64,000 nucleotides of DNA. Origin: Labia minor (lineage: Eukaryota > Arthropoda > Insecta > Dermaptera > Spongiphoridae). Numbering within the stretch: position 1 is the first letter of the stretch; each line of letters opens with the position of its first letter. Position numbers and translations under genes: made by a program. This document shows positions 13,162 to 53,295 of this stretch, one piece after another. The stretch lies in the NCBI GenBank assembly GCA_963082975.1, contig OY720344.1:7737580-7801579 (forward strand), in the 5' to 3' direction. The notes below the pieces were generated by a model that saw only the letters and a list, made by a program, of their open reading frames with translations, had not been told where the DNA came from and did not search any database.

Positions 13162-13602
13162 AGTAATTATTCAAGTAAACGCATTTTCGTGGATTTGGAT
13201 AATACTTAAGTTTGACAGATTAGTTATGAACGTCGAAATGTCCGATTATGTGATGTTTTATTGATTAATTCACTAATTATTCACGTATTACCTAATTTTT
13301 GGTTTTTATAAGTTCGGTTTGGATATAGGCAAATTATTTAATTAATTTTTTAGTTTTCATAAATCCAAACCGAACTTATAAAAACAGAAAATTAGTGCGC
13401 CCTCTGGTAGACAAACGGATAAGCTATGCTAACTAAATAGAATATCAATGGATTTATATGCAAATTTTAATAATTTTTATCTAGTGAACTAGAAGAGGCC
13501 CAAAAAAATTTCATATGAAAAGTTTATTTAGAATTACAAAAAGGAACCCACTTATAAAGTATTATCCAAATCCACGAAAATGCGTTTACTTGAATAATTA
13601 CC
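13162..13602. mobile_element. FB-A: fold-back hAT-like element
   Basis: A 441-bp palindromic element flanked by the 8-bp direct repeat TCAATTTT (13154-13161 and 13603-13610), the size left by hAT transposases. The two ends match each other perfectly over about 40 bp, in the form (A/G)GTAATTATTCAAGTAAACG running on through CATTTTCGTGGATTTGG. A second inner palindrome sits around 13300-13385 (AAGTTCGGTTTGGATATAGG). The interior shares ATTCACTAATTATTCAC, GATTTATATGCAAATTTTAA and AATTAGTGCGCCCTCTGG-type blocks with FB-B, FB-C and FB-D. The outermost segment of about 22 nt is not shared with them. No coding capacity. Confidence 0.85.
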
Positions 13603-14129
13603 TCAATTTTTGTCTAATTATATATTTGCACACGTAATTATTGAAATATATATATAAATTTGTATTTGTATTTTCAAATTATTTAATTTGTATTAATATA
13701 TTCTTGATTTTTATTAATTTATTAAAGTTAATAATTTATTTTAATTTTTTCAATAAATTTGATAAATAGATTTATTAAAAATTTTTAATTATTAAGTATT
13801 TCTTTAAAAATTATACGAGATATTTTCGAATAAAATACTTATAGATAAACTTTAGTGATATAAATATTTATTTAAACGATTTCAATTATTAATTGTAAAA
13901 TTGTAAAATATATTTGATATGTATATTTAATTAATAGTAAAAATATTATAACATACTTGTTCTAATAAAGAAATTTTGATATAAAATAACACATAATTTG
14001 AAACTTATTTCAAATATCTTACAAAAATTGTCTTAACAATTTAGAATAAATTTATGTGACATAGAAATAGTTAGTTACACAATTTTCTATTATTTTTTTT
14101 TATATTAGTAGATAATTTAATAATAATAT
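13603..14129. other. AT-rich non-coding DNA
   Basis: Very A/T-rich after the FB-A target duplication; nothing recognised. Confidence 0.6.
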
Positions 14130-14665
14130 CACATAAATTATCACTTTTTGAGAATTCAGTGCCCCAATGGAAAGACGGTTTGGCGAATGAGTCTTTAGCT
14201 AAACCAAGGCAAAATGTAAGCAAGCCAGGAGACGTATTGGTTTTATTCGGTAGTCCGTTTATCGGGGTTAGGAACTTTTTTATTTTCAAGGTGGTGGAGA
14301 TCGTTATTCTGTTAAATGGGAGTCCGTCACAAAGGTGATAAATCGCTTTTTTCCCCAACACTAAACAAAAAAAATCTTATCCTTTGGAAATAACTTACCA
14401 TTTTTAATTATTTACAAGTATATAGTAAAGAATTGGTTTGTTTGATGGAGACAAATCTAATAGATGCATCTCATGTCATCGAACTCACTGTCAGTAGTAC
14501 TTCAACTTTATTTGGCAGCGTTGACGCGTTCTTTGGATAATTTTGAAGAAGAGAATATAAATGAACGGTTGAATGCATATGATTTCTGTAATCAAGAACT
14601 TTCAAGTACCATTTCGCCAAAAACAGTTGTTAAAAAATTTGTTAATAGAAAATTATTTATATTTT
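14130..14665. other. unidentified moderately complex block
   Basis: Less AT-rich and free of simple repeats. Three frames stay open here: plus about 14140-14340 (includes SVPQWKDGLANESLAKPRQN), minus 14361-14071, and plus 14464-14667. None matches a family I know, the plus and minus frames overlap, and no clean splice pattern joins them. It could be a decayed transposon body, an old pseudogene, or one or two exons. I do not assign a product. Confidence 0.3.
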
Positions 14666-14815
14666 AAAATAATTTTAAGGCTATAATTCGAAGTTGTAAA
14701 GGGCGGATTGTTTTACATATATAACATAATATATACGTACAATATAATATATAATAAATTTAGTAATTAAATATTTAGTAATTAAAAAGAAGAAAAAAAG
14801 TAAATATAGGTAGTG

Positions 14816-15060
14816 CAGAGTGATTCTCAACCTTTTTGTTTTTTACCGCGGCACACATTTAACGATTTAAAAATTTGGCGGCACACAAAGAAAAAGATAA
14901 GTGTACCATATTGAAAAAGGTGGTCCAAAAACGGGTTACGTTTTTTTTTTTAGAACCAAATTGAAAAAATTTAGAAAAAAAAATTGAAGAGCCTCGTAAT
15001 CACGCGGCACACTTTGAAAATCTCGCGGCACACAAGATTACTTATTTACTAAGAACCCTA
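14816..15060. mobile_element. hAT (Charlie-type) MITE remnant
   Basis: The left end reads CAGAGTGATTCTCAACCTTT, and the interior has GCGGCACACA-type words three times (near 14851, 14880 and 15005, plus 15026). CAGNGRTTCTCAA ends with GCGGCACAC inside are typical of hAT-Charlie elements. The right end is degraded (TAAGAACCCTAAAT), so the exact boundary and target duplication are uncertain. Confidence 0.65.
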
Positions 15061-16167
15061 AATACTTCTTAATGTATTAAATCCAAGTATTTGATAAAAT
15101 CAAATGAAAATTGAAATTTTTAATATAAAAAAAAAAAAAAAAAATTAAAAGGAAATAACGTAATAAGTGTTAATAATTACTATGTCCAAATGATAATGTT
15201 AATATGCAAAAAAGAAAAATAAGCAATTTTGACGACAAGAAAATTGGCTAAATTTCACCGATTGACAAATAATTTATAAATAATTTATAAAGTAGATGTT
15301 AGTGTGTGTGTGTGTGTGTGTGGTATTAAATCTCTTCAATAGCAGATGGAAAAGAAGGAGGAGGAGGAGGAGGAGGAGGATTTCTATTTGTAGACTGAAA
15401 TGGACAACTTCCTTTACCAGGTGTCTGTCTCATCCATCCCAATTGGAGGCATCCAATATGCAAAACCTTCGTTGTTTAAAATTCCATTGGGAAACGTCAA
15501 TTCCGCCTGCACCACCATCGGATCATATTAATAAGTGAAGGCTCCGCCCTCGTCAAGCGGAGGGCGGCTATCTATCTGGGGTGTGGGTTGGCAAGAGGAG
15601 GGATGACACCGAATATCTCGTATATATGTATTCATACAAGGATAACTTCTTTACAAAATTCGAACCGGTGAAGATTTTAATAGATTTCAAAATGTAAATG
15701 AAAAAAAAAAAAAAATACATTTTCATTTTTATATTTAATCGAAAAATTTTTTTTAAGGAAATGAGAAAAAAATATCTATAAAAGAAAAAAAATCAATATG
15801 CCATACTTAATAAGATATCGGTTCAATTTACTGTTAATAAAAAAATAAATACACAGTTTACTTATTAATAAATAAATAAATAAATAAATAATAATAATAA
15901 TTAAACAAGTTGACAATATTGGAATTATTAAAATTTTAAAGAATGAAATTTATTTATTTGAAAGAGAATGTATGATGTATGTATGAGAATGATGAATGCT
16001 ATTCAATGTATGAAATTATAAGTTGTTCAATATATATATATTATCTTTTATATTCATATCATTTAATTTAGTGTAATTTAGCATCAGTGACTAAATGAAT
16101 CACTAAATATTTAATCCTATTAAACGACTATTTTTTTTAAAAAAAAAAAAAAAAATCTTTATAATAC
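15061..16167. other. AT-rich DNA, SSRs and a small island
   Basis: Contains (TG)n at 15302-15321, (GGA)n at 15357-15380, and an island at 15380-15610 with CGCCCTCGTCAAGCGGAGGG that can form a short hairpin. The 80-codon frame through it consists of the microsatellite plus unique sequence, so no gene is called. The remainder is A/T-rich, with (AATA)n around 15860-15890. Confidence 0.5.
15302..15380. repeat. (TG)n and (GGA)n microsatellites
   Basis: A TG dinucleotide run, then about 35 bases of unique sequence, then about eight AGG units. Confidence 0.9.
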
Positions 16168-16403
16168 AGGAGAATCGAAAAAGGTGGACGGGATTTCGAT
16201 GAGTAATAAAAACCGTAATACAAATGGTAGAATATTTATTTATATATCAAAAGACACAGAAAATCTTGAACATTTTTATGTACTCCCGCCACGTGTTTTG
16301 AAGCATTACAGGAGTCACAGTTGTAATGGTTGCGTAAATTATTTCTTTCAGATGCTGAAGATCGACGAATTTTTTCCGCATAAACGATAGCTCCAAAAGA
16401 AAA

Positions 16404-16449
16404 AATCTCGACTATCTCGCAAATTTGAATTGGATTAAATAACATATTA
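16404..16449 (-). mobile_element. HEL-A 3' end fragment
   Basis: About 46 bp reading TCTCGACTATCTCGCAAATT and continuing to GGATTAAATAACAT, the inner 3' end of HEL-A without its terminal hairpin. It lies just before segment DUP, on the downstream side of the HEL-A at 16785. Confidence 0.8.
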
Positions 16450-16452
16450 TAA

Positions 16453-16784
16453 AGGGGTTAATATTATATTATTTAAATAATTATATATACATTGAAATTC
16501 ATCCATTGAATAAATTCAAAACATAATTTTAACGGATTATTACAGAATACAGAAACTGTTAAAATGTATGTTAAAATTTCAGTTGAATCCAGAATTCAAA
16601 TACAAATACAAATAGATTAATTGAAAGAATCTTGCAAATTTTTTTATAAAATATAAAAATAGCTACTAGTTAGCTGCTACAAATAATAATATTATTTTTT
16701 TAATTACAATAAAATTATAGTATATTTATTTGTATACGTGTATATTCTTATGTATTAAATAGAATGAAAAATTTTAAAATTAAA
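16453..16784. repeat. duplicated segment DUP, copy 2
   Basis: Near-identical to 9413-9723, with small indels such as an added AAAATAGCTACTAGTTAG stretch. It again joins directly to a HEL-A 3' end. Confidence 0.9.
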
Positions 16785-17272
16785 ATAAGCTGGAGTGTCT
16801 CCACTCGACTATCTCGCAATTTGAATTGGATTAAATAACATAATATTTTATATTTAAATTAAATTTAATTAATTATAAATTATAAATTAAAATTAATAAA
16901 TAATATTTATTAAACCAGCGCATGTTTGGCGCTTAGTTGATGGCACCACGTCTCGTGCTGGAGCGTGAGATATGCAGTGTTAAAAAAATCTGGAACTTTC
17001 AGCAACCCAATCAATCTGATATTATATATATAGCAGTTTTCTAATCATATGAAAAACTATCAAACATTTTTCTTTATTTTTACGGTCACTTTAGAGGAAA
17101 CAAAATCAAAACGTTTTAAATAATGACCCTCTTTCGGTTGAACTACATTTCTCAAAAGTTGATAGAAAACTACGAATTTGGAATAATGCCCGTATACCAA
17201 ATTTCATTATTCTTGCTCAAACCGTTTTTGCGTAATCTTGTCTACATACATACCCACACACACACACAAACC
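16785..17272 (-). mobile_element. HEL-A, copy 3 (5' truncated at the microsatellite)
   Basis: The 3' hairpin side and core are intact through ACCGTTTTTGCGTAATCTTG and the (CA)n tract. The copy then stops: the CACTAAGGTTGAG block and the 5' motif are missing and unrelated sequence follows. Confidence 0.88.
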
Positions 17273-17453
17273 TGTTGTTGAGAGCATCTTGGACGATTAG
17301 GCCATAATGACATTTAGCCCAATGGCTTCGGATAAATGCTACTCAAAATATTTATAATGCTATTCAATCTCTCGTTAATTTCGTGTTAATGACGTGTTTA
17401 TTTTTCGAATAGTTATACACAATAAATTCCCGTCCCCCTTTTTCGATGACCAT

Positions 17454-19111
17454 GTATAAAAAAAAATGAACATATACAAATTAAAAATAAACAATTTCAA
17501 TAAATTCAATTTCTTTCTTTTTTTTTTGCTTTGTATTACAGACACATTTCAAAAAATAAATTAATAAATAACTAAATGTCAATTTTATGCAATTGTCTAA
17601 TCAAATCATCTTCTATAATGATTCACAAAAAAAAAAAAAAAAAAATTTTCTTCAATTTTCTCTCCCCTTTTTTACAATTTATTTATTTATTTAAAATATA
17701 TAAAAGATAGACCATCAAACGATTGAAATTGAAAATTTATTAAAAGTTTATTTATTAGAATGATTTTTAAGATTTCCGATGAATCTCATTTCCAGTATCT
17801 ACATCATAAAAATAAGATAAATGTAAAGATCTAAACATGACTAAATAGCCTAAGCAACCACAACGTTTCGGTGATATCATTAGACCATTCTTCTTTTGAA
17901 AATAGATAACGAGTGTCTATTATCCTGTGTCATGTTAAAAGAAGTTTTCTTTCCAAAAATAGAAGAGGAGGACATGAATGCCATTTAAATAATTGACTTG
18001 ACATATCGTCAACGTAATCATCGGTCATTTTCACATTGTTTTGGTGGTTTTAGTTTTTTTTTTTTTTCAAATTCCGACAAATGACGGCGTATGGCAATAA
18101 ACTTTTACCTCCAAATACATTCAGCTATTAATAATATTTTAATTAATTTATTAAAGGAAAAAAAAAAAAATTAAAATATCCGTTGTATTTAGATGGCTTG
18201 AGCATCATCACTACCCCCCCCCCCATCCATTCACATCAACACCCTTCTTCACTTTTCAAAATTCAAGTTTGATAATTGCTCTTACAAGCATTTGAATGTT
18301 CGTTTCAATTTTTTTTTTTTTTTTTTTTTTTTGTTTCCTTCTCTTTCTCTGTTGCTCTGTTGTTCCCTTCATGAAGAGCGTTTGATAAGATATATAATAA
18401 AAAAAAAAAAAAAAAAAGAAAAGATGATCCCATTTGGAAATTTGAATGCGCGTTGTTTGAAATCGGAGCCGGGCAGTAAGCAAATGTACGGGCATCCTGG
18501 GGTGGACGCACGTAAGTAGACCCATTCCCACCACCTAAAAAAAGGCACCCCTCGCTCTTTATATGCAAATACAATTGACAACCCTTAAAAAAATTAATTT
18601 AATTAACAAAAAAAAAAAAAAACGCAAAAAATGTATCAGAACAATCACGGATATGGTTTTTTTTTGCAATTTTTTTTTTTTGTTTCGAACAGATGTGAAT
18701 TATATTGAAGGAACAATAGAAATACTTTTTTTTTAATAGGCAAAAAAAAACTTATTCTCTCTGTCTCTATCCGTTTATAATAAGATTAATTGTCTATGTA
18801 TATATTTCAGCAACTCAAATGGCCTTAGTGACTTTTCGAACCCTTTCAGGACACAGATTTTTTTTTTTTACTTTTGCATCTTTATTAGTTTTTTTTCGGT
18901 ATGTTATTCAAATGAAGCATCTGGTATAAGAATCATTTCATTTGTTACACTTTTCTACTTGATGTGATACGATTGAATATAGTAGTATATTTATAATAAG
19001 CAAAATTATACTTATAATAATAAATTTGATATTAACTAGAATTCGAGTACTTTTTTTTTTTCTTAAAGCTTTCTCTATAATTTATAAAACGTATTATAAA
19101 ATGAAATAATA
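17454..19111. other. AT-rich DNA with two islands
   Basis: Poly-A and poly-T rich. Island 17830-18060 (AACCACAACGTTTCGGTGAT) and island 18410-18565 are less AT-rich. The second holds GGGGTGGACGCACGTAAG, with a GTAAG splice-donor-like word, and TATATGCAAATACAATTGAC. Pairs of long T and A runs (18309-18332, 18399-18417) flank it. Several short frames on both strands exist only because of the homopolymers. Confidence 0.5.
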
Positions 19112-19610
19112 CTAGCTGCTCAGAGCGCCTTCGGTGCTCTTCACAGCTAGACGGGGGCTCCGCCCCTTGTACCCCCGAGTGGTACATAGTATTTGGTTGA
19201 AAGTAGTAAAAGGTTTTCATCCATTTTGTTTCAATCATTATATTACATAAAACATTCATTTCTTTTTGTGTTCTTATTTAAAATATATTTTAAATTAATC
19301 AGTAAATTAATTATATATTAGCGGACCAGTGTGAGAGCCCTCACACGCAAAGAAATTGAAACGCATAAGATTGAAAAATATTATAAGATATAAGAGGCAC
19401 TGGATGTGACGTCACAAATGACGTCAAAAATAATAAAAAGTAAGAAAAAAATTATTTTTTCACTTTTCTCAAAAAGTATTTATTGTTTTCCAATGAATTT
19501 CACGCTATTAATAGATTAGCCCGAGGGCTATCAAATGGCATTGGAATGGCCCAAATTGCATAAGTCGTTTAGGATGAGTATGGGATAGAACTGTCTTTTA
19601 AATATATAGA
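19112..19610 (-). mobile_element. non-autonomous Helitron with intact ends
   Basis: In its own sense the element begins TCTATATATTTAAAAGACAG directly after a host A. It ends with a hairpin (GAGCACCGAAGGCGCTC, stem with one mismatch), seven bases, then CTAG followed by host T. These are the textbook Helitron ends: TC at 5', hairpin then CTRR at 3', inserted between A and T, no target duplication. The 499-bp interior has a second GC-rich inverted repeat (GGGGGTACAAGGGGCGGAGC region) and a pair of TGACGTCA palindromes at 19407-19414 and 19419-19426. There is no Rep/helicase. Only one copy occurs in the window. Confidence 0.82.
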
Positions 19611-20014
19611 TAGTATAATAGTATAACATATATAATAAAATTTTCCGCTTTTTTTCCTTCTTTCCAATTCTTTTTTTAAACAAACAAATTAATTATTAAT
19701 GTTTGAATTACTTAATTTTTATTTTTTAAATTATACCTATATATATCCATTTTTTTTTTTGACTCAGTCGTTACAATTTGATAATTGAAAAAAAGAATTA
19801 TGAACGAATATCGAAAAAAAAATTAAAATTAATTGTCTTCTATACAATATCTTAATAAATTTAGTAGAATAAATTATTATAAATAAAAGAATATATATAT
19901 GTTGTATAAAAATTTTTATTTTATATATTTATTTTTTGTTATTTAAATTTGATGAATCAATTTAAATTGCTATTATCAATATTACCAATCCATATAAAAA
20001 TAAGTATAATATTA
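19611..20014. other. AT-rich non-coding DNA
   Basis: Low-complexity A/T sequence; nothing recognised. Confidence 0.6.
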
Positions 20015-20279
20015 AGGTGACCAACCGTTCTCCATTAGGGAGGACAGTCCTCCATTTGTAAGCTCTGTCTTCCTAACTGTCCTCCTTTTTGATATCTGTC
20101 CCGTTTTTAGAAATATTTAGGACATTTCGTACTTTTTTTCAAAATTTTTTCAATTTATCTCTAAAAAAAGCTCAACCGTTTTCTGGACTAAGCTTTTGAT
20201 AATTTCAGAATTTTTTTCAATTTGGTTCTAAAAAAAAGGTAAAATGTCCTGATTTGGTGTTTTCAAAAAATGGTTACCT
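20015..20279. mobile_element. hAT-like MITE (AGGTGACCA ends)
   Basis: Ends read AGGTGACCA and TGGTTACCT (9 bp, one mismatch). The flanks TAATATTA (20007-20014) and TAATAATA (20280-20287) agree at 7 of 8 positions, fitting a hAT-type 8-bp target duplication. The interior has repeated GGACAGTCCTCC, CTGTCCTCC and CTGTCCCG words. Non-coding, 265 bp. Confidence 0.6.
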
Positions 20280-20332
20280 TAATAATATCCATGATGTGAT
20301 AAATACTCAGTAGTATGTATTGTAATGATAAG

Positions 20333-20640: not shown

Positions 20641-20710
20641 ATACAAATAAATATACAATTTTTGCTAGTATAATAAGATAAGATACATTATTATAAAAAA
20701 GTTCTAATCT

Positions 20711-24609: not shown

Positions 24610-25199
24610 AAATAAGCTGGACTGTCTCTACTCGACTATCTCGCAGTTTGAATTGGATTAAATAACATATATTAAGTTAAATTAAATTAAATTAATTAAA
24701 TTATAAATTAAAATTAATAGATAATATTTATTAAACCAGCGCATGTTTGGCTCTTTGTTGATGGCACCACGTCACGTGTTGGCGCGTGAAATTTGCAGTG
24801 TTAAAAAATTAATTTTGGTACTTTTAGGGATTCAATCAAGCTGAAATTCTATATATAGCTGTTTTATACGATTTTTAATCATGAGAAAAATTGTCAAACA
24901 TATATCTTTATTTTTACGGTTACTTTAGAAGAAAAAAAATCAAAACGTCGTAGGTAATGACCCTCTTCCCATTGAGCTACATTTCTCAAAAGTTGATAGG
25001 AAAACTACAAATTTTGACTAATGCCCGTGTACCAAATTTCATATTTTTAGCTCAAACCGCTTTTGCATAATCTTGTCTACATACATACACACACACAGAC
25101 ATTTTTCTCAACCTTAGTGAAAATTATTCAGGAACCTTTGAAACGTATAAAAACATCAAAATCTCGAAATCGAAATTTTCGTGGCGAGATAGTAAAAAT
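24610..25199 (-). mobile_element. HEL-A, copy 4
   Basis: Near full length, from AATAAGCTGGACTGTCTCTA (3' side) to GGCGAGATAGTAAAAA (5' side), with a short (CA)n at 25086-25097 and both the ATGAAATTTGG-type core and the CACTAAGGTTGAG block. The 5' hairpin arm is partly lost (GTGGCGAGAT). Confidence 0.9.
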
Positions 25200-25956
25200 A
25201 TCCCATAATAGAGAGAAAGAGAAACATACGTCATATGTACATTAGAATTGTTTAATTTGTTTATGTTGAGATAACTGTAAGAAGACCATGCTATTGTTTT
25301 TTTTGATAAATAAAGATATTATATTCCAATTTAAGTTAAAAAAAGTCAAATAAGGTTGTAAATCATTTCAAATGAGAGAAGAGGAAAAAAAAAGATTTTT
25401 TTTTTTTTTTATTGGAATTGAAAATTTCCCTTTTAGGGATTGATTGTAGGGGTCATAGAGTCTCATCTTGTTTAGGTCATCGCGGTCAAAGAACATCTAA
25501 ACAAGGCTGTTGGCCATTCTTTGATATGTCGAGTTGAGTTGGGGTGGGGCAGGGTGGAGGGGGATAAAGCATTATCACAGCATGCTAGTTTTCTATAGAC
25601 CTAAAAGGCTAGCAAAGCAAACAAAGCAAAGGTAGGAGGACTGTCTCTGGAATACAAATGGCGAAATCGCATAGAGAGCATAAATGGCGAATGCCATCCA
25701 TGGATTGAGAGAGAGAGAGAGAGAGATGGGTTGTTTGTCTTAGAGAAAGACTAGCGGACGTGCTCAGTGTAACTAATCACTAGCACAACAACAACAACAA
25801 CAACAACAACAACAGAAGCAACCACCAATAGATACGACAATTCAAACTAAAGAATTGGATAAATAAATGCTTACAAAAAAGAAGAGACATACAATATGTA
25901 AAATAATTCTTAAAAGATATGGTACACATAAACTGCATAACTGCAAATGAAAAAAT
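25200..25956. other. unique island 25430-25760 and (CAA)n
   Basis: The centre is clearly less AT-rich than the surroundings and not repeated in the window. It has CATCGCGGTCAAAGAACATC, GGGGTGGGGCAGGGTGGAGG, two CAAATGGCG/TAAATGGCG words (25657, 25680) and GGCTAGCAAAGCAAACAAAG. A GA run lies at 25708-25725 and (CAA)n at 25784-25815. No open frame of note. It behaves like a non-coding conserved or regulatory block, but this cannot be shown from one sequence. Confidence 0.4.
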
Positions 25957-26441
25957 TAGCTGGAGTGTCTCCACTTGACTATCTCTCAAATTGAATTCGA
26001 TTAAATAACATAATATATTATATTTAAATTAAATTTAATTAATTATAAATTATAAATAATAAATATTAAACCAGAGCATGTTTGGCTTTTTGTTGATGGC
26101 ACCACGTCACGTGATGGCGCGTGAGATTTGCTGTGTTAAAAAATTAATTCTGGTACTTTCAGCGATTCAATAAAGCTGAAATTCTATATATAGCAGTTTT
26201 ATACAATTATTAATCATGTGGAAAAATTATCAAACATATATCTTTATTTTTACTTCACTTTAGAGGAAAAAAAATCAAAACATTGTAAGTAATGATCCTC
26301 TTCCGGTTGAGCTACATTTCTCAAAAGTTGATAGAAAACTACTAATTTTGAATAATGCTCATGTACCAAATTTCATCATTCTAGCTCAAACCGTTTTTGC
26401 GTAATCTTGGTTACATACATACACACACACACACACACAAT
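25957..26441 (-). mobile_element. HEL-A, copy 5 (5' truncated at the microsatellite)
   Basis: The 3' end TTAGCTGGAGTGTCTCCACT and core are intact up to the (CA)n at 26420-26440, where homology ends. The missing 5' part resembles the inverted fragment at 26977. Confidence 0.88.
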
Positions 26442-29925: not shown

Positions 29926-30589
29926 TTTTTTTTACTATCTCGCCAGAGATAGTATTGCGATCACGAAAATTTTCGATGTTGAGATTTTGATGTTTTTATA
30001 CGTTTTGAAGGTTCCTGAATCATTTTCACTAAGGTTGAGAAAAATGTCTGTGTGTGTGTGTGTATGTGTGTGTGTATGTGTGAGTGTATGTGTGTATGTG
30101 TGTATGTGTGTGTGTATGTATGTAGGCAAGATTACGCAAAAACGGTTTGAGCTAGAATGATGAAATTTGGTACATGGACATTATTCAAAATTCATAGTTT
30201 TCTATCAACTTTTGAGAAATGTAGCTCAACCGGAAGAGGGTCATTACCTACAACGTTTTGATTTTTTTTCCTCTAAAGTGACCGTAAAAATAAAGATATA
30301 TGTTTGAAAATTTTTCACATGATTAATAATTGTATAAAACTGCTATATATAGAATTTCAGCTTGATTGATTCGCTGAAAATACCGGAATTAATTTTTTAA
30401 CACTGCAAATCTCACGCGCCAACACGTGACGTGGTGCCATCAACAAAAAGCCAAACATGCGCTGGTTTAATATTATTATTTATTATTTATAATTTATAAT
30501 TAATTAAATTTAATTTAAATATGATATATTATGTTAATTAATCCAATTCAAATTGCGAGATAGTCGAGTGGAGACACTCCAGCTAATTT
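29926..30589 (+). mobile_element. HEL-A, copy 6 (best full-length copy)
   Basis: All landmarks are present: TTTTACTATCTCGCC with the complete 5' hairpin (GAGATAGT), TATTGCGATCACGAAAATTT, CACTAAGGTTGAGAAAAATG, and a long (TG/TATG)n (30048-30123). Then come GATTACGCAAAAACGGTTTG, ATGAAATTTGGTACATGG, AACCGGAAGAGGGTCATTAC and the ACGTGACGTGGTGCC box. At the 3' end are GCGAGATAGTCGAG and GTGGAGACACTCCAGCTAA. The minus frame across the microsatellite is not a gene. Confidence 0.93.
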
Positions 30590-32037
30590 AAAAAACATCT
30601 GTTGAAAAGTATTTGATCATTTTCCGTGATATTGGAAAAGAATAAACTTATCTCTGAGAGAATTGGACAAAGACAAAATTGTAATCATTATTTAGTCTTT
30701 AAATAACACTTCAAACCAAATCCCGTTTAACTTTTTTACTAATGCCATATAAATATAAAGAGAGTCTTAAAGGGTTAAAGATGACATTAAATATATTTCG
30801 GGAATTGAAATAAATATAGAATGTTTAAATGTATAAAGTAAGCTTTAGCTTTTCAACATCTTATAATTAGGAGAGCCCCTATCAAGTCGGGTCGGTTGTC
30901 GTCTGAACGGGGTAGATGTGTTATATGATCAGTACATCAGCCTTTATCTTAATTTTCTTAATTCCCTAACCCACTTGTCAGGCCTGCGATTTTCAGGTTC
31001 ATAAGTTTGAAAGGTATGTGAGCTCACTCCCAGGTTACATTGGGGTTTTATATCAATAATTTATATACTACATAAAAATAAAATTATGAATTTTAAATAA
31101 TTTGATTTTTTTATTATTTTTAATCTTTGAGGATAAAAAAAAATACAAAAAATATAAAAATTTCTGGATAATATTAATGATAAAAAATTTTTAAAAAAAT
31201 ACAAATTTTATATAATTGAATTTACTTTTTTTTTTGTTTAAAGTACTGAAAGTACTTAAAGTACTGTATTTTAATAAAACGATTTAAGTATATTTCTATA
31301 GGTATTTAATATACCATCATATAATATCTTATATAAAAATCATCGTTTCTTTTTTAATATTTTTTTTTTATTTTTTTATTTTTACGCGTAGTGTATTTTT
31401 ATCCATTACCTTTGGACCTATCGAATTTATAATCATAAATTTGACTGACAGTAAGAATGTCTCTATATTTGTGTGAAAGATTTTTTTTAAAAGCATCATA
31501 TATATTCAATCACTATCTTATCTACTCTCTCTGTCTCTTTCTCTCTCTCTCTCCTTCTTCTTCTTCTTCTCTTCTCATAAATACAGATATACATCCTTTC
31601 CTCTTTCTCTCTCCTTTAAAGTTAAAAAATAAACTCGACAAACATTCATGGTTGAGGGATTTGGAAGATTTTTATCAAAAAGAAACCAAAAAAAAAAAAA
31701 AAGTATAAGGCTTTTTAGATATCGTCTCAGCACGTTATATTAAAATACAAGATTTTCTTTCTTTAACCGTCACAGGAAATAAATATTAGGATATTAATTT
31801 CATTTTGACACGAATTCTGAACTGATATTTCGTTGTGTTTATCTCACTACTTGGATTAATTTATTATTTTAACGAGTCATAAATATTTCGGTAGATGAAT
31901 CTTAAGAAGTATCAAATCCAAAGTATCTCGTTTAATTCTATTATATTAATAAGTTTTTATGTTTTTTAAAAATTCATAATGGATGAATTTTGACAAATTT
32001 CATTATAAAATAACTATTATTGTGTGTATGTGTAAAA
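30590..32037. other. AT-rich DNA with a unique patch
   Basis: Patch 30868-31045 is less AT-rich (CTATCAAGTCGGGTCGGTTG, CACTTGTCAGGCCTGCGATT) and unassigned. CT-rich run at 31530-31575. The 83-codon frame at 31457 is pyrimidine-run driven. No gene. Confidence 0.5.
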
Positions 32038-40502: not shown

Positions 40503-40620
40503 ATATATATTATATATATAAATCTCATGTCGCGATGTTAAGCCAAAATAAATACAAAAATTGAATGAAATTATATATAAATAAAACTATTACACAGAGA
40601 CTTTAACAAAACCTATTACT

Positions 40621-43479: not shown

Positions 43480-44007
43480 TGTAATAGTTTACAAACCGGG
43501 AATCTTAAGGGATTTGGATGAAACTTTGCCAGCCGATTCCTTTTCTAATTATAAATAATCTTTCCTAATGCAATATTTCTCGGATTATTCTAGTTTTTGA
43601 GATAAAAATTATTAAAATTTGCATATAAATCTATTGACATTCTATTTAGCTACCATGTTTTATTTATTTTGCCAGCAGAGGGCTTCATTAATTTTTTGTC
43701 TTTCAGTTCGTTTGACTATATGAAAATTAAAAAAATAATTAATTAAATAATTTTCCTATATCCAAACCGAATCAAAAAAGCGAAAATAAGTGAATAAGTG
43801 AATAATTAGTGAATTAGGCAATAAAACATTACTAAATTGCTGCTCATTCATAACTAGTTTATATACAAATTTTAATAAGTTTTATCTCGTAAGCTAGAAA
43901 AGACCGAGAAATATTGCATAAAGAAAGTTTTTTTGGAATTAAAAAAGGAATCCACTGACAAAGTTTCATCCAAATCCCTGAAGCTTCCCGGTTTGTAAAC
44001 AATTACC
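43480..44007. mobile_element. FB-B: fold-back hAT-like element
   Basis: Ends are GTAATAGTTTACAAACCGGG (left) and, outward from the right, GGTAATTGTTTACAAACCGG; both run into GGGATTTGGATGAAACTTTG. About 45 of 50 end bases match between its own two ends. Interior blocks are shared with FB-A, C and D, including ATTTCTCGG, GATAAAAATTATTAAAATTT and GCAGAGGGCTTCATTAATTT. The target duplication is unclear: CTTGTTYT occurs just right and about 17 bp left of the end. 528 bp, non-coding. Confidence 0.8.
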
Positions 44008-44049
44008 TTGTTTTAGTAAATGTATAAAGTTGTTTTATTTGTATAATTA

Positions 44050-44087
<38 letters not shown>

Positions 44088-45375: not shown

Positions 45376-45930
45376 CGAAGTGTGTCTAAAAAGTTCGGTA
45401 ATGATATGGTAAAAACATAAAAAGAGAATGTAAATTGTAAATATCTTTATTAACCTTCAAAATACTCTCCACTTGCCACAACACACTTCTGACAACGTTC
45501 GTATAACGCTTGAAAACTGTTGGAGAAGTCTTGATGTGGAATCGTTCTCAGAGTAGCCGTCACAACGTTCAGGCCGGCAATCCACAAGCAGGACACCAGA
45601 AAACACTACTTACTGTGTTTTTGCTAATACCCAATTCTTCGGATATTTGTCTCAGAGTCAATCGCCGATCTTTTGTTAGCATCTCTCGTACACGTTCAGT
45701 GTTTTCTGGTGTCCTGCTTGTGGATTGCCGGCCTGAACGTTGTGACGGCTACTCTGAGAACGATTCCACATCAAGACTTGTCCATCAGTTTTCAAGCGTT
45801 ATACGAACGTTGTCAGAAGTGTGTTGTGGCAAGTGGATAGTATTTTGAAGGTTAATAAAATTATTTACAATTTACATTCTCTTTTTATGTTTTTACCATA
45901 CCATTCACCCAACTTTTTAGACACACCTCG
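45376..45930. mobile_element. palindromic mariner 1
   Basis: A 555-bp fold-back element between TA runs. The arms 45376-45607 and 45698-45930 are near-perfect inverted copies. Each arm begins GTGTGTCTAAAAAGTT and, read inward on the antisense, encodes the transposase tail KCVVASGEYFEG and stop (the right arm has VESI). Each ends with the SGRPSTSRTPENT linker seen on the minus strand. The 90-bp loop encodes, on the minus strand, EMLTKDRRLTLRQISEELGI, the second helix-turn-helix of the mariner DNA-binding domain. The catalytic domain is gone. The plus frame 45510-45848 is antisense of this and not a gene. Confidence 0.9.
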
Positions 45931-45958
45931 TATATATATATATATATATTCTTATTTG

Positions 45959-46415
45959 GGTAATTGTTCAGTCTAACCGATGTATCATGGATTTGGATAA
46001 AATTTTACCAGTGGATTCCTTTTTTGATTCCAAACAAACTTTTCTTAAGCAGAATGTGACGGTCGCTTCTAGTTACGAGATAAAAATTATTAAAATTTGC
46101 ATATAAACTAGTTATGAATGAGCAGCCATTTAATTTTTTATTGACTAATTCACTATTAATTAATTTTTTAATTTTGAATTGTACTTATAAAAACAGAAAA
46201 TTAGTGAAGCCCTCTAGTGGTCAAATAATAAAACATGGCAGCTAAATAGAACATCAATGGATTTATATGCAAACTTTACTAATTTTTATCTCGTAAACTA
46301 GATGCGACCGCCACATTCTACTTAAGGAAAGTTTGTTTAGAATCAAAAAAGGAATCCACTGGAAAATTTGTATTTATCCAAATTCATGATACATCGGTTA
46401 GACTGAACAATTACC
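45959..46415. mobile_element. FB-C: fold-back hAT-like element
   Basis: Perfect 8-bp target duplication CTTATTTG (45951-45958 and 46416-46423). Both ends begin GGTAATTGTTCAGTCTAACC and continue GATGTATCATGGATTTGG (one mismatch in the right copy). Interior shared with the other FB members: AACTAGTTATGAATGAGCAG, AGTGAAGCCCTCTAGTGG and GGATTTATATGCAAACTTTA. 457 bp, non-coding, about 20 bp from palindromic mariner 1. Confidence 0.9.
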
Positions 46416-47530
46416 CTTATTTGATAAAATAGTTTAATCGTATTAAATATTCGTAAAATAATTAAAGGATAAATGAAAGTACAAAAGTGATTAAAGCAAT
46501 CAAAATCACAATAACTAAAAAAAAAAATAAAAATAAAATATTAATTAAATATGGTCATATATATATTTAAGAATATACGTATATATATCATTCCCTTTTG
46601 TAATTAATGAAGATTGGATAAGATAGGAAATGATCTCTTCATTTAATATATCAATAAATAGAAAAAAAAGGGCATCTATGTATTTCATTGCTAGAGCTTC
46701 GTTAATTCTCTAAGGCCAATGGAAGGGATTATGACTGGATTCATTGGCAAAATCACATTATATGTATTTTTCAAAATTATTAATGAAAAATAATAATAAT
46801 CTTTGAACAAAATAATATAATCAATGCTCGAATAAAACATTTATTTTCACAATATAAATTCAATATTATAATTAAATACTGAATAAGCTTTGTACTCTTC
46901 GCTCTGTCTACTTTTATAAAAATTTTCAACTTTTTAAATTAATATAAATTTAAGTATTGAAGTTTATGTTTAAAATTATCAACATTTTCAATTAAAAATG
47001 TTATAGTTTTTATAAGATCCATTAATTTTATGGAAAATGTATTCGAATAAAAAAAAAGAAAAGAAATGAGTTGAAAAATAAAAACAAGAATTAATTTTGA
47101 AAGAGTTTCTTTAACAAGAATGCAGTTTAAATGTAACGATGAGCTCATCTTGCTGGAGGTTATATTTCTCTATCTAAATAGTATCAGTTGCGTTGAATCA
47201 TCATCATTCGTTATATATAATTTCGTCATCAAGTCAATTTAATCATAGTGACATTTCGCATAAATGACTTTAATTAAATGCTTAAAAAAACGAGTCTGCG
47301 CTTGCCTTTAGTTAATATTAATAATAATTTGATCTGAAGTGTATTTATTACATTTATGACCATTTAAGTAAAATTTTAAAAATTTTGTGTCTCTCTCTCT
47401 CTCTTCTCTCTTCTTTATCCCCGAGTCTAATTGATATTTGCATCAATCAATTAAAACGAAACAATTTAAAATTGTAATACATGCTAACAAAGAAGAATAG
47501 TAGAAAAATAAAAAATTGAAATTAGTTTAA
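46416..47530. other. AT-rich non-coding DNA
   Basis: A/T-rich; patch 46668-46750 slightly less so. CT run at 47391-47410. Nothing recognised. Confidence 0.6.
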
Positions 47531-47543
47531 TATATATTATATA

Positions 47544-47620
47544 CAGGGTGTCCCAAAATGAAAGAGCAGTTTGTCTGTAATACGAAATTGAAATCTGCTC
47601 TTTCATTCTGGGACACCCTG
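47544..47620. mobile_element. 77-bp palindromic MITE (CAGGGTGTCCCA ends)
   Basis: Left arm CAGGGTGTCCCAAAATGAAA and right arm TTTCATTCTGGGACACCCTG pair with one mismatch; the loop is about 25 nt. The palindrome continues into TATATAATA flanks, so TA target sites are likely. CAGGGTGTCCCA ends are common among Tc1/mariner-type elements. Confidence 0.85.
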
Positions 47621-47650
47621 TATATAATATATACATACACACACACACAC

Positions 47651-48510
47651 TAGGTTTGTTCAAAAGGTGAATTTTGAATTATTTCGAAAAGTATTTATTT
47701 ATTCATCAATATCCATTTTGTCCCTTTCAAAGTAATTCCCCTTAGATATAATGAACTTATGCCAGCGCTTCTTCCAATCGTCGAAGCACTTTTGAAATGC
47801 GCTTTTCGGTATTGCCATCAGCTCGTTCTTCGATTCTGACTTTATCTCATCCATTTTGCCAAAACGCTCCTTTCATCGGTCTATTCAGTTTTGGGAATAG
47901 GAACAAGTCACAGAGAGCCAAATCTGGTGAATACGGTAAGCATCATTACGGTGATGTTTTTGGCTAAAAAGTCACGAACTAGAAATGATGTCTGAGATGG
48001 TGCATTATCCATGATGTGTTTTTTCACAATTGCGATTGTTTGAGTCGTATTGATTCACGCAAACGATGCTTTGTAGTATTCCATATTTACACTACATTTG
48101 TTCGTAAGAACTCATGATGCACCACGCCAAACAGTGAGCAAAACCTTCACATTTGATCGAAATTGGCGTGCTTTTTTAAAACGCTTGTACCACTTATAAA
48201 CATTTTTTGAGACAAAGTAGACTCGCTGAATGACACACTCAACATTTTAAGTTCGTTGGAGCACTTTATTCAATTTGTGCCCCAAAATTTAATACAGAAT
48301 CATTGATCCATTTTTTTAAGTAAAAAATCGAAGAACACACAAAAACATGACTAACTCTTTCAGTTGTCAAAAACAAACTACTAATCCAAAATGGCTTATA
48401 ATGTCAACATTTGAGAAATATATGTGTACCAACATAACAAAAAAAATTCGATAATCGAATGTATACACCCCGCGAAAATTCAAAATTCACCTATTCTTTT
48501 GGTCAGACTA
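47651..48510 (-). mobile_element. mariner element, copy 2 (defective)
   Basis: Ends TAGGTTTGTTCAAAAGGTGA and, outward from the right, TAGTCTGACCAAAAGAATAG, both followed by GTGAATTTTGAAT. Read on the minus strand, the C-terminal part is well preserved: SKNELMAIPKSAFQKCFDDW, KKRWHKFIISKGNYFERD, then a stop near the end. Upstream, LPYSPDLALCDLFLFPKLNR holds the third-aspartate block, and FGVVHHEFL the VVHHEF motif. Several stops and indels interrupt it. It shows the C-terminus lost in copy 1. 860 bp, so internally deleted or lacking most of the N-terminal domain. Confidence 0.85.
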
Positions 48511-50249
48511 TTTTGAATGATTTTTTAAGATATCCATAAATATTTACTATTTATTTTACTATAGACAAATTCAAATTCAAATTTCTCCACAAATACAGAT
48601 CGTAGTGCCACTACTAAATTAGCTCATTCGAAAGGTGACACTGTATACATTGGATAGAGTATCAAAACATTGAATTTGGTTTAGTAGTTGGAAAGTTATT
48701 TGCGTTTTGCGTTTGAGAAAAATAATGAAAAAATGTATTATATTTTGCAATATTAATGTACTTATATGTGTGTGAATATATCTTTCCAATATACGAGTAT
48801 AATATATGTATTACTTATATATTTATTTAGGAAGTATGAATGAAGAGAGGAGAAGGTAAAAGACATGATTTTTCATTTAATTAAGGTGAGGAATAGTTAA
48901 GTTAGCCCACATAATGGAAGGCATGGTATCTTCTAAAGTAAATACAGATATCTCTTTTACAATAGAAGAATCTACTCATTAATTTAATCATTTATGTTTA
49001 GAAAACTTGAATTTGTTTCTAAAATTGTTTAATTTCAAGTAAATCATGTTTAAATTTTTTTATACTTTTGGATTTTAATTTAATTTTAATTAATTTATTT
49101 TTTAAAATATTTTAAGTACAATTTATTTTAAAAATTCTTCTTAATAGCTGGTATAACATGATTCAGATATTTCTGTTTGTTTTCTAATTCACTATTTTTT
49201 TTCTTCTTCCGCCCTCCGCCTACAGTGGCTTCTTTATCTCTCTCTCTCTCTCTCTCCTCACACACTTACCAATGAAAACTGAGAAATCGTTACTTGTTGT
49301 ACAAATCCTTTTGATAGGCCTATAAATTTAGTAGATTAACTGTCAGAAGAGTTGAAGGTCATTGGAGGCAGGTGATGGTTACATCTGGCAAAAGAAGTTC
49401 GAAGAAGGAGGGAGGAGGAGGTAAATAAATGATGTAATAGATAAATTCTCATCCATAACCCTTTTTAAGGTGTAGTACGTGAAAGGTCATCATCGTCATT
49501 AAAAATGGTCTCAGGGTACTTTCTTCTTGGTGAATTTTTCGTGCTAATCGCAAAAGGCAGGCAGTAAATGAGCGAGGTAGGCAGGCAATCAGCCAGCGAG
49601 CCAGGCAGGCTTTGTCCGTGTGCCAACTCAGGTGACATAATAGGTATGCGACACACCTATTGGCCCATCGACATGCATACCTGAATAGAAAAGACGGGGC
49701 TGCCAAGCAGGAAACGCTCCGAGTGAATGGATGAATTATAATCAAAACCCCTCGAAGCAGTCAAGGTCCTCATTCCAAGTGTGTAGGCTGGACCCACGAG
49801 TGTAAAGGGAAGCCCACTCGTTCACTGATCGGCCCTAATCAACCACAATTTAAAATAAATTTCCCTCTCTTACACCCAAACATTCAGAATAATAATAATA
49901 ATAATATATAATGCAACAACGGAAGATGAGATACTCTATCCAATTACCAATAAATACCATTCAACTAACTAATAAAGAGAAATAAATAAATAAATAAATA
50001 TTAACTTAAAATTAAGTTTTATTATTTATTTATTTTTTTACTTTAAAATTTAAAAACTAAAAATATACGTATGGAATGGTATTTTTCAATTATCTTCTCA
50101 CATTGATATATAATTTTCATTTTTTTTTTAATTCAACTTTATTTATATTAATACTTTAACATAATTAAGTAATTATTTATAAAGTTCTTTTGTCATAATA
50201 TTATGTTTTTATTTTGATATAAATTTTTAGTTAATTTTTCGTTTTTTTG
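48511..50249. other. AT-rich DNA with unique island 49190-49860
   Basis: The island is the largest less AT-rich unique block in the window: CCGCCCTCCGCCTACAGTGG, GGCAGGCAATCAGCCAGCGA with repeated (A)GGCAGGC, CCTCGAAGCAGTCAAGGTCC, and a CT run at 49236-49256. Two overlapping minus frames (98 and 63 codons) disagree and carry no known domain. It could be a conserved non-coding element or include an exon; no gene is called. Confidence 0.4.
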
Positions 50250-50815
50250 TTTTTACTATCTCGCCTGAGATAGTATTGCGATCATGAAAATTTTCGATGT
50301 TGAGATTTTGATGTTTTTATACGTTTTGAAGGTTCCTGAATCATTTTCACTAAGGTTGAGAAAAATGTCTGTGTGTGTGTGTGTGTGTGTATGTAACCAA
50401 GATTACGGAAAAACGGTTTGAGCTAGAATGATGAAATTTGGTATTCAAAATTCGTACTTTTCTCTCAACTTTTGAGAAATTTAGCTCAACCGGAAGAGGG
50501 TCATTATTTACCACGTTTTGATTTTTTTTCCTCTAAAGCAGTGCTCTAAAGTGACCGTAAAAATAAAGATAATTTTGATAATTTTTCACATGATTAAAAA
50601 TTGTATAAAACTGCTATATATAGAATTTCCGCTTGATTAAATCGCTGAAATTACCAGAATTAATTTTTTAACACTGCAAACACGTGACGTGGTGCCATCA
50701 ACAAAAAGCCAAACACGCTCTGATTTAATAAATATTATTTATTAATTTTAATTTATAATTTATAGTTAATTAAATTTAATTTAAATATAATATATTATGT
50801 TATTTAATCCAATTC
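50250..50815 (+). mobile_element. HEL-A, copy 7 (3' end lost)
   Basis: Starts TTTTACTATCTCGCCTGAGA and keeps a (TG)n at 50371-50390 and the whole core through ATGTTATTTAATCCAATT. It breaks off before GCGAGATAGTCGAG and the hairpin. A short insertion GCAGTGCTCTAAA near 50538 duplicates the CTCTAAAG word. Confidence 0.9.
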
Positions 50816-50890
50816 TCAAAGATTCCAGATTTTTCCATTTTAGTTAATAATCATGACAACTATGGTACTTCTATTCATATAAGTACAACG

Positions 50891-50938
<48 letters not shown>
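50816..50938. repeat. (AT)n microsatellite
   Basis: Pure AT run from about 50892 to 50938 directly abutting the mariner end, consistent with mariner's TA target choice. Confidence 0.8.
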
Positions 50939-50939
<1 letters not shown>

Positions 50940-51015
50940 TAGGTTGGTGCATATGAAATGTCGTATTCTTAAGTGATTGTATAAAACTGTATATCTTTCT
51001 TCAAAAGCTGTTTAT

Positions 51016-51243
51016 TCAATCAAAGTATGCTCCATTCGCTTCAATACACTTCTCCCAACGAGATTTTAAAGCGTAGATGCCTGTCTTAAAAAAATTTTGA
51101 TCTTTAGAATTAATAAACTCTGATATCGAGTTTTTTAGACTGTCTTCATTTTCATGGTGTTTGCCTCTTAAAAACAGCTCTAAATGCTTGAAAAAATGAA
51201 AATCGGTCGGCGAGAGATCCGGTGAATATGGTGGATGCTGCAA
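51016..51243 (-). pseudogene. mariner transposase C-terminus, left arm
   Basis: Reads QHPPYSPDLSPTDFHFFKHL, which includes the third catalytic aspartate (SPTD), then FLRGKHHENEDSLKNS, and ends SRWEKCIEANGAYFD and stop. It is the inverted twin of the right arm. Alone it lacks the first two catalytic aspartates and cannot be a working enzyme. Confidence 0.9.
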
Positions 51244-51506
51244 AACTTCATATTCCAGTTCGTTCAGTTTCGAAATTGTTTTATGCGATGTGTGCGGCCG
51301 AGCGTTGTACTGGCAGTACTTTTAAGTTAAAAATTGTACTCCCATCGCTTGTGAATCGGCATGGCCCGCTACTACTCCATGACAACGCTCGGCATCTCAT
51401 CAATGTACTGGCAGTACTTTTCGGCCGAAAAGTACTGCCAGTACAACGCTCGGCCGCACACATCGCATAAAACAGTTCGTTCAGTTTCGAAATTGTTTTA
51501 TGCGAT

Positions 51507-51932
51507 GTGTGCGGCCGAGCGTTGTCATGGAGTAGTAGCGGGCCATGCCGATTCACAAGCGATGGGAGTACAATTTTTAACTTATCGTGCATCTCATCAA
51601 TGTACTGGCAGTACTTTTCGGCCGAAAAGTACTGCCAGTACAACGCTCGGCCGCACACATCGCATAAAACAATTTCGAAACTGAACGAACTGGAATATGA
51701 AGTTTTGCAGCATCCACCATATTCACCGGATCTCTCGCCGACCGATTTTCATTTTTTCAAGCATTTAGAGCTGTTTTTAAGAGGCAAACACCATGAAAAT
51801 GAAGACAGTCTAAAAAACTCGATATCAGAGTTTATTAATTCTAAAGACCAAAATTTTTTTAAGACAGGCATCTACGCTTTAAAATCTCGTTGGGAGAAGT
51901 GTATTGAAGCGAATGGAGCATACTTTGATTGA
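51507..51932 (+). pseudogene. mariner transposase C-terminal half, right arm
   Basis: A frame of 141 codons. Its first 30 or so codons are out-of-phase or antisense mosaic. From YWQYFSAEKYCQYNARPHTS onward it is genuine transposase, but the stretch carrying the second aspartate (LLLHDN) is skipped at an internal join. It continues with TISKLNELEYEVLQHPPYS through to the AYFD end. In the unbroken version on the minus strand the spacing from HDN aspartate to SPTD aspartate is 34 residues, the DD34D mariner signature. Defective. Confidence 0.85.
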
Positions 51933-52013
51933 ATAAACAGCTTTTGAAGAAAGATATACAGTTTTATACAATCACTTAAGAATACGACATTTCATATGCA
52001 CCAACTCTACCTA

Positions 52014-52769
52014 TATATATCCAATGAAAAATTAGATTAATTATTTTTTATTTTAATATCTATGCACAAAAAAAAAAATAAATAGCAAACGGATGCAATG
52101 AATATAAAAATTAATTAACCAAAAAAACAACAGATTTTTTTACATTTAAATTTAATTTTCTCTCAAAGGGAGGACAAAAGTGATAAATTTATCTAAATAT
52201 ATACATTTATTAGTTAGCATAAAGAAATGATTACAGTCAAATGATTAGTCACAAATATATACGTCTAAGATATTATAAAGAAAGGCAAATAAAATAGAAA
52301 GGAAATCGTTTAAAATTTTTTTTTTACTTTCAGTTTAATTATAAACTACATATAGTATGTGTCTTTCTCATTATAATTATTCTTTAGTTAAATGAACAAA
52401 TTAGTTATATTTAAAATTTAATTATTTTTTAAATTTTTATATATTTTAAACAAATGTTAAAATAAATATTGAATCCTAATGAAAGAGAAAATTCCAAGTT
52501 AAATAATAATAATAATAATTAATAATCCACATCATTAGAAAGGTCCTAATGCTATGAAGAATTTGAAATAAGGGTGTTGTGGGTCAGGTTGAAGTCCTTC
52601 TCCGCCTCCCCTTTGAGCCTAATCTCAATAAAAAAAATGAGAAATAAAAAAATGATAGCTAAAAGTGCGCAAGTGCTGCGAAGTGTGCAAAGATTCATAA
52701 TTTATATTATGCCAACTTTGCATCAGAGCCACCAGCTTTCAAGATTATTTTTTAAATCAATTATATTTT
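52014..52769. other. AT-rich DNA
   Basis: A/T-rich; patch 52570-52745 is less AT-rich (GTCAGGTTGAAGTCCTTCTC), with a 66-codon frame that I cannot support as a gene. Confidence 0.5.
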
Positions 52770-53295
52770 TGTAATTGTTCAGATTAGTTGTCATGTCATG
52801 GATTTGGATGAAACTTTGCTAGTCGACTTCTTTTTTAATTCCGAAGAAACTTTCTTTATACAATATTTCTCGGTCTTTTCTTGTTTACGAGATAAAAATT
52901 ATTAACGTTTAACAGATAAATTAATGAAAGCCCAATTGAGCAGCCATTAAGTAATGATTTATTGTCTAATTCACTAATGATTCACTTATTCACTAATTTT
53001 AGATTTTTTTCAGTTCGGTTTAGATATAGGGAAATCATTTAATTTTTCTATATCTAACCCGAACTGAAAAAAAAAACAAACAAAAAATTAGTGGAGCCTT
53101 CTGCTGGTAAAATTAATAAAACATGGTAACTAAATAGAATTACAATGAATTTATATGCAAATTTTAATTTTTATTCCATAAACTAGAAGCGACCCGGAAA
53201 AATTGCATAACGAAAGTTTTTTTGGAATTAACAAAGAATCCACTGTTAAATTTTTTTACAAATCCATGACATCATAACTAATCTGAACAATTACT
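52770..53295. mobile_element. FB-D: fold-back hAT-like element
   Basis: Both ends begin GTAATTGTTCAGATTAGTT, then ATGTCATGGATTTG. The central palindrome TTCAGTTCGGTTTAGATATA / TATATCTAACCCGAACTGAA is the clearest of the family. Flanks TATATTTT and ATTATTTT agree at 6 of 8. Interior shared: ATTTCTCGGTCTTTTCTTGT, ATTGAGCAGCCATTAAGTAA and AGTGGAGCCTTCTGCTGG. 526 bp, non-coding. Confidence 0.85.

What the first reader, a model, noticed from the sequence alone, without database searches (positions are those of the whole stretch)
13162..53295. FB elements carry a private but mirrored ~22-nt segment at both ends
FB-A, B, C and D share the outermost GGTAATT and the interior from GGATTTGGAT onward, but the 22-23 nt between differ in each: ATTCAAGTAAACGC.. 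(A), GTTTACAAACCGGG.. (B), GTTCAGTCTAACCG.. (C), GTTCAGATTAGTTA.. (D; partly like C). Within each element the left and right versions agree almost perfectly. Length is constant while sequence is copy-specific, like a barcode written twice. Separate evolution of the two ends would not keep them matched, so either each copy's ends are copied from one another (hairpin-mediated correction) or each represents a lineage that changed its end recognition.
Basis: partly seen in the sequence, partly recalled or inferred. Interest (0 to 1): 0.85.

Follow-up and report, generated by a model that had tools for sequence, protein, structure and literature searches.

The report
Transposon subfamilies with swapped end-recognition segments
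The four look-alike mobile elements belong to ordinary transposon subfamilies, each with many copies that carry the same matched end segment; the odd part is that this short segment has changed far more between subfamilies than the DNA on either side of it.

Summary
The four elements are real: inverted-repeat DNA transposons of 441-528 bp without room for a transposase. A and C have perfect 8-bp target duplications. Within each, the two ends match (85-100% over a 13-nt core) while different elements do not (mean 28%).

"Private" is wrong. The genome (604 Mb) holds 2,751 exact matches to the end pattern. Of 84 sampled ends, 72 fall into three clusters. Element A's apparently unique end has 901 matches with up to 3 mismatches. 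Ends match mainly by subfamily: identity 0.867 within a copy, 0.832 between copies of one subfamily, 0.454 between subfamilies. T1/T2 chimeras: 2, against about 30 expected.

Two points survive. (1) Between subfamily consensuses the 23-nt segment differs 4-10 times more densely than the inner arm (14 of 15 pairs), yet within subfamilies it decays at an ordinary rate. That points to turnover in the source elements, probably of the transposase-recognition site. (2) A modest within-copy excess exists: 21 shared derived sites against 7.6 expected, as occasional end-to-end copying would leave.

The transposase was not found, so recognition turnover is inferred.

The parts
13162..13602 (-). element A (441 bp, end type TA), alpha arm largely deleted; 8-bp target duplication TCAATTTT at 13154-13161 and 13603-13610. 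Strand is that of the alpha-to-beta reading relative to B; orientation is a convention only
13169..13190 (+). A, left end segment (22 nt)
   Evidence: identical to the right one; 901 matches genome-wide to the 37-nt end with up to 3 mismatches
13574..13595 (-). A, right end segment (22 nt)
43480..44007 (-). element B (528 bp, end type T1); no recognisable target duplication
43487..43509 (+). B, left end segment (23 nt)
   Evidence: 21 of 23 equal to the right one
43978..44000 (-). B, right end segment (23 nt)
   Evidence: exact segment also at L013 and L068
45959..46415 (+). element C (457 bp, end type T2); 8-bp target duplication CTTATTTG at 45951-45958 and 46416-46423
45966..45988 (+). C, left end segment (23 nt)
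   Evidence: identical to the right one
46386..46408 (-). C, right end segment (23 nt)
52770..53295 (+). element D (526 bp, end type T3); flanks TATATTTT / ATTATTTT match at 6 of 8
52777..52799 (+). D, left end segment (23 nt)
   Evidence: 21 of 23 equal to the right one
53266..53288 (-). D, right end segment (23 nt)

Best explanation
The FB elements are copies of one high-copy, non-autonomous DNA transposon family: about 140-nt inverted arms, a unique interior of some 200 nt with a small central palindrome, and 8-bp target duplications. The family has split into subfamilies, each spread from source elements whose two ends were alike. Shown: recurrent end types, same type at both ends, end type tracking interior ancestry, and a sharply bounded segment (positions 8-30) that differs 4-10 times more densely between subfamily consensuses than the adjoining arm while decaying at an ordinary rate within subfamilies. 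Inferred: positions 1-7 are the cleavage end, the variable segment is the site that the transposase's DNA-binding domain recognises, different subfamilies are moved by transposases of different specificity, and both ends must carry the same site to be mobilised. Inferred with partial evidence: a change at one end reaches the other by occasional copying between the inverted arms.
For: Recurrent types: 41, 19 and 12 of 84 ends in three clusters, then 3, 2 and 7 singletons, one of the singletons (A) having 901 genome-wide matches. Same type at both ends: 56 of 60 elements; of the other 4, three have a right end that matches no type well (0.43-0.52) and one is between the two close types T1 and T1b. 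Genome-wide, exact cores, one length class: 41 T1/T1, 22 T2/T2, 2 T1/T2, about 30 expected by random pairing. End type on the interior tree: 11 changes, minimum 8, shuffled mean 26.0, 0 of 200 as low. Local turnover: for example T1/T3 13 of 23 against 6 of 107, T1/T2 12 of 23 against 11 of 107, outer 7 identical. No local mutation hotspot: derived cells per site within subfamilies 0.085 in the segment, 0.061 at 31-60, 0.088 at 61-85, 0.134 at 86-110. A 147-bp copy, L080, with a perfect 8-bp duplication, keeps only about 31 nt of the end on one side, which suggests the end proper is that short. End-to-end copying: shared derived sites 21 against 7.6 expected at 8-30, 14 against 5.5 at 31-60, 23 against 13.8 at 86-110.
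Against: No transposase was linked to the family: the 20 PF12762 loci, 12 PF05699 loci and one intact hAT pair that could be read show no FB ends; P-element flanks could not be fetched and the MULE search did not complete. Copies with different ends were not shown to need different transposases. Types were defined by the segment itself and ends that matched no type were dropped, which flatters the same-type identity of the segment. The shared-site excess is not smooth (61-85 not significant, p 0.12; none at 111-137) and reaches significance in T1 and T2 only (T3 p 0.30; T1b and T4 not tested alone), so small sub-subfamilies could produce part of it. T3 and T4 are not separated on the interior tree. 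T1/T1b shows no excess in the segment (3 of 23 against 8 of 107, p 0.41).
Confidence: 0.68

Rival explanations
1. Each copy carries its own barcode, written at one end and copied to the other after insertion (hairpin-mediated correction in every copy).
For: Within the window, four elements show four matched segments. A within-subfamily excess of shared derived sites exists.
Against: The segments recur genome-wide. Within-copy identity exceeds that between copies of one subfamily only slightly (0.867 against 0.832); by type the excess is significant in T1 and T2 only (permutation p 0.0002, 0.036; T1b 0.48, T3 0.33, T4 1.0).
Confidence: 0.04
2. The segment is a spacer free of constraint, or a mutation hotspot, that simply drifts faster.
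For: It is the most divergent stretch between subfamilies.
Against: Within subfamilies it does not decay faster than its neighbours (0.085 derived cells per site against 0.061-0.134), although the sample is biased towards ends that still match a type. A free spacer mutating at the same rate should differ between subfamilies about as much as the inner arm (4-15%), not 22-65%, and would not stay matched at the two ends.
Confidence: 0.08
3. Interiors and inner arms are homogenised between subfamilies by ectopic gene conversion, while the diverged outermost ends escape, so that the arms look too similar rather than the ends too different.
For: T3 looks mosaic: its alpha-arm consensus is nearest T1 (101 of 107) and its beta arm nearest T4 beta (101 of 107), with identical outer 40 nt. 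Galileo in Drosophila mojavensis shows exchange among copies (PMC3573991, passages).
Against: End type mostly tracks the interior tree. T3 copies are heterogeneous: 3 of 6 alpha arms carry the T1 base at site 41, 24 of 82 T3 ends genome-wide do, and the 3 T3 elements listed with both ends carry A at both.
Confidence: 0.2

Closest known systems
Galileo (P superfamily, Drosophila), a foldback-like DNA transposon with subfamilies
   Same: Long inverted repeats, subfamilies told apart by their ends, near-identical ends within a copy (98-100% stated), rare chimeric copies (12 of 170) (PMC3573991, passages seen).
   Different: Galileo arms can exceed 1 kb and it makes 7-bp duplications; here arms are about 140 nt, duplications 8 bp, and the divergence is concentrated in one 23-nt stretch. 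No P-type transposase was tied to this family (11 P matches, flanks not read).
MITEs / short non-autonomous inverted-repeat DNA transposons
   Same: Short, no transposase, high copy number, inverted ends, fixed-length target duplication, subfamilies.
   Different: Usually the ends are the conserved part and the interior varies (recalled, not from a call); here the interior and inner arm are shared and part of the end varies.
Two-part transposon ends: outer cleavage part and inner binding part (recalled; described for bacterial insertion sequences)
   Same: A conserved outermost stretch followed by a family-specific stretch would give this pattern. PMC5771124 (passages) states only that the IS3-family HTH motif recognises the inverted repeats and the DDE domain catalyses.
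   Different: Binding and cleavage were not tested here.

Membership tests
Non-autonomous inverted-repeat DNA transposon (MITE / foldback-like) | inverted terminal repeats | tested here: met
   alpha and beta arm consensuses identical over 1-137 in T1, two differences over 1-137 in T2
Non-autonomous inverted-repeat DNA transposon (MITE / foldback-like) | target-site duplication of fixed length | tested here: met
   8 bp perfect in A and C; 30 of 56 fetched elements match at 7 or 8 of 8, best of three offsets, no shuffled control
Non-autonomous inverted-repeat DNA transposon (MITE / foldback-like) | many copies, no transposase gene | tested here: met
   2,751 exact ends; 60 elements of 216-1284 bp, most near 500; none of the three window ORFs of 150 aa or more lies in an FB element
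hAT superfamily | 8-bp target duplication | tested here: met
   as above; shared with other superfamilies (recalled)
hAT superfamily | ends of hAT type (YARNG-like start, recalled) | tested here: not met
   ends start (G/A/T)GTAATT
hAT superfamily | hAT transposase flanked by these ends | tested here: inconclusive
   12 loci cut out of 150 scored (3604 candidates) show none; the two loci of an intact 868/865-aa ORF have no exact GGTAATT or GGATTTGGAT
Merlin (IS1595-like) | IS1595-type transposase flanked by these ends | tested here: inconclusive
   56 PF12762 matches, 20 loci read by a loose end pattern and by eye, none continues into an FB arm
P superfamily / Galileo | P-type transposase flanked by these ends | not tested
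   11 PF12017 matches, loci could not be cut out
Mutator-like | MULE transposase flanked by these ends | not tested
   search PF10551 did not complete

The most novel reading that the evidence does not exclude
The 23-nt segment is a fast-changing molecular lock: source elements repeatedly change the sequence that a transposase must recognise, perhaps to escape exploitation by their own non-autonomous copies or a host repressor, and the change is written to both ends by copying between the inverted arms, while the cleavage end and the rest of the arm stay put.
Probability: 0.3. Interest if true: 0.7.

Novelty: new variant of a known kind. Interest (0 to 1): 0.42.

Why it matters
If the segment is the recognition site, one genome holds at least six end types on almost the same transposon arm (recognition sites swapped within a common scaffold). 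That gives natural material for asking how transposase specificity changes while both ends stay compatible, and whether transposons diverge to escape their own parasites. It also corrects a tempting misreading: four copies in one window looked like individual barcodes because each came from a different subfamily.

Tried and rejected
Private barcodes: rejected by recurrent segments. Reassortment of ends onto foreign interiors: a first interior tree (42 rows, 15 changes) had a starred clade with four end types; two searches showed the signal came from an inverted central loop in four of its five members, and without the loop the types follow the tree better (11 changes, 45 rows). CTCF-like motif as a functional core: 17 exact core matches across 60 elements, but its columns are about as conserved as the interior (0.80 against 0.77). 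Long autonomous element: the 3.87-kb L109 has matching ends but reads as an FB copy with two nested insertions (by eye); L110 and L111 showed no second end. Relatives elsewhere: exact patterns found nothing in viral contigs or genome contigs. Print: the four typed end or arm strings occur in 89 papers, of which 20 listings were seen, none with a transposon title; searches gave listings only, apart from the passages of PMC3573991 and PMC5771124. One search failed on an argument. Sample limits: of the 100 rows listed I took 85 loci and fetched 80; 24 of these 80 had no second end by my method, two of which (L026, L080) are short copies seen later and one (L009) is the nested L109.
Full report
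WHAT IS THERE. The window (G+C 25.4%; position G000:C1:7737580-7801579 of a 604-Mb, 71-contig genome) holds four related elements: A 13162-13602, B 43480-44007, C 45959-46415, D 52770-53295. They align along their whole length once B is reversed. Each has two inverted arms, a unique alpha side, a unique beta side and a small central palindrome. A has lost most of its alpha arm. A and C have perfect 8-bp target duplications; D's flanks match at 6 of 8, B's do not match. The organism was not identified; mariner-like fragments in the window suggest an animal (by eye).

IS THE OBSERVATION RIGHT? In the window, yes. The 13-nt core is 0.85-1.0 identical between the ends of one element and 0.28 on average between elements; the inner arm shows no such contrast.

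IS IT PRIVATE? No. The pattern GGTAATT-20 to 25-GGATTTGGAT has 1322+1429 exact matches, none for the reversed control. Of the 100 rows listed I made 85 loci and fetched 80. Single-linkage clustering of 84 ends (80 plus 4 of the window) gave 41, 19, 12, 3, 2 and 7 singletons (the 12 merge T3 and T4). A was one singleton, yet its 37-nt end has 901 matches genome-wide with up to 3 mismatches, 79 of the rows listed besides the window's own being exact.

DO COPIES MATCH BEYOND THEIR SUBFAMILY? Sixty elements had both ends located (56 fetched, 4 of the window); 24 fetched loci had no second end by my method. Both ends were nearest the same type in 56 of 60; three of the others have a right end resembling no type, and one lies between T1 and T1b. 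Types TA, T7, T9 and T10 were defined from single elements, so their agreement is partly built in. Region by region (53 elements), the segment is 0.867 identical within a copy, 0.832 between copies of one type, 0.454 between types; positions 31-60 give 0.874, 0.865, 0.827. Most of the match is therefore subfamily membership. Random re-pairing within a type gives p 0.0002 for T1 and 0.036 for T2, but 0.48, 0.33 and 1.0 for T1b, T3 and T4. Derived substitutions shared by both ends: 21 against 7.6 at 8-30 (p 0.0005), 14 against 5.5 at 31-60 (0.001), 10 against 6.9 at 61-85 (0.12), 23 against 13.8 at 86-110 (0.005), 10 against 11.9 at 111-137 (0.74). A single mutation hits one end, so shared derived bases suggest copying between ends, in the copy or in its source; small sub-subfamilies would look the same.

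CHIMERAS. With exact cores and one 31-wide length class, the genome holds 41 T1/T1 elements, 22 T2/T2 and 2 T1/T2. Random pairing of 84 T1 and 46 T2 ends would give about 30. Segmental duplicates were not removed (two T1 rows on C10 look identical).

END TYPE AND ANCESTRY. A first interior tree needed 15 changes and had a supported clade mixing four end types. That signal came from an inverted central loop, found in L028 (T2), L042 (T10), L043 and L044 (T1): 4 of 42 decidable elements, 5 undecided. Without the loop the tree of 45 elements needs 11 changes (minimum 8, shuffled mean 26.0, 0 of 200 as low); few branches are well supported, T3 and T4 are not separated. So end types are mostly lineages.

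THE REMAINING ODDITY. Between subfamily consensuses the outer 7 nt are identical, the 23-nt segment differs at 5-15 positions, and the inner arm (31-137) at 4-16 of 107. The ratio of densities is 4.1-10.1 in 14 of 15 pairs (Fisher p 9e-3 to 8e-9, pairs not independent, not corrected) and 1.7 for T1/T1b (p 0.41). Within subfamilies the segment is not a hotspot: 0.085 derived cells per site against 0.061, 0.088, 0.134 and 0.100 in the four stretches inward. Ends that matched no type were dropped and one end of each fetched locus had exact anchors, so that comparison is favourable to the segment. The simplest reading is that the source elements changed there under selection.

HOW IT PROBABLY WORKS. 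Inferred: positions 1-7 are the cleavage end, 8-30 the specific binding site, and each subfamily is moved by a transposase that fits its ends; ends must match to be moved, which removes unmatched variants. L080, a 147-bp copy with a perfect 8-bp duplication, keeps only about 31 nt of the end on one side, which fits a short functional end if it moved after the deletion. Copying between the arms probably helps both ends change together: T1 alpha and beta consensuses are identical over 1-137, and the T3 consensus shows T1-like bases in the inner alpha arm, T4-like bases in the beta arm, and identical outer 40 nt. Against a clean T3 story: only 3 of 6 alpha arms carry the T1 base at site 41, 24 of 82 T3 ends genome-wide do, and the three T3 elements listed with both ends have A at both.

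WHAT WAS NOT FOUND. No transposase. PF12762 gave 56 matches (20 loci read), PF05699 150 scored of 3604 candidates (12 loci read, plus one intact pair), none with FB ends. PF12017 gave 11 matches whose flanks could not be fetched; PF10551 did not complete. A narrow search for A-type ends that continue otherwise than into GGATTT found one, an FB copy with a 2-nt insertion (L112).

KNOWN RELATIVES. Galileo of Drosophila mojavensis has subfamilies, ends 98-100% identical within a copy and 12 chimeric copies of 170 (PMC3573991, passages). The present family resembles it in that. The concentration of change in one bounded stretch of the end is what I did not find described, in the searches, which are few and cover open-licence papers only.

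VERDICT. The finding is mostly explained by ordinary subfamilies, with a bounded fast-changing end segment that deserves a follow-up.

Noticed in passing
50931-52017: A mariner-like stretch forms a palindrome with 393-nt arms, 98% complementary, 301 nt apart; the frames read as rearranged pieces of one transposase.
   Followed up: no
45400-45905: Palindrome with 208-nt arms, 97% complementary, 90 nt apart, some 50 bases before element C.
   Followed up: no
16780-17268, 24610-26439, 29967-30592, 50288-50815: A second dispersed repeat family with many direct and inverted pieces at 77-95%.
   Followed up: no
FB interior, beta side (e.g. within 46190-46230 of C): A CTCF-like core (motif recalled) occurs exactly 17 times across 60 elements; it is no better conserved than the interior around it.
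   Followed up: partly
L028, L042, L043, L044: The central loop of the element is inverted relative to 38 other copies, with different end types, so probably more than once.
   Followed up: partly
L026, L112: Duplicated ends: L026 has a partial second copy of its right end, L112 two A-type ends 177 bases apart in the same direction.
   Followed up: no
L080: A 147-bp copy with a perfect 8-bp duplication lies beside a sequence that reads like an exon of a Myb/SNAPc-type gene (by eye, not searched).
   Followed up: no
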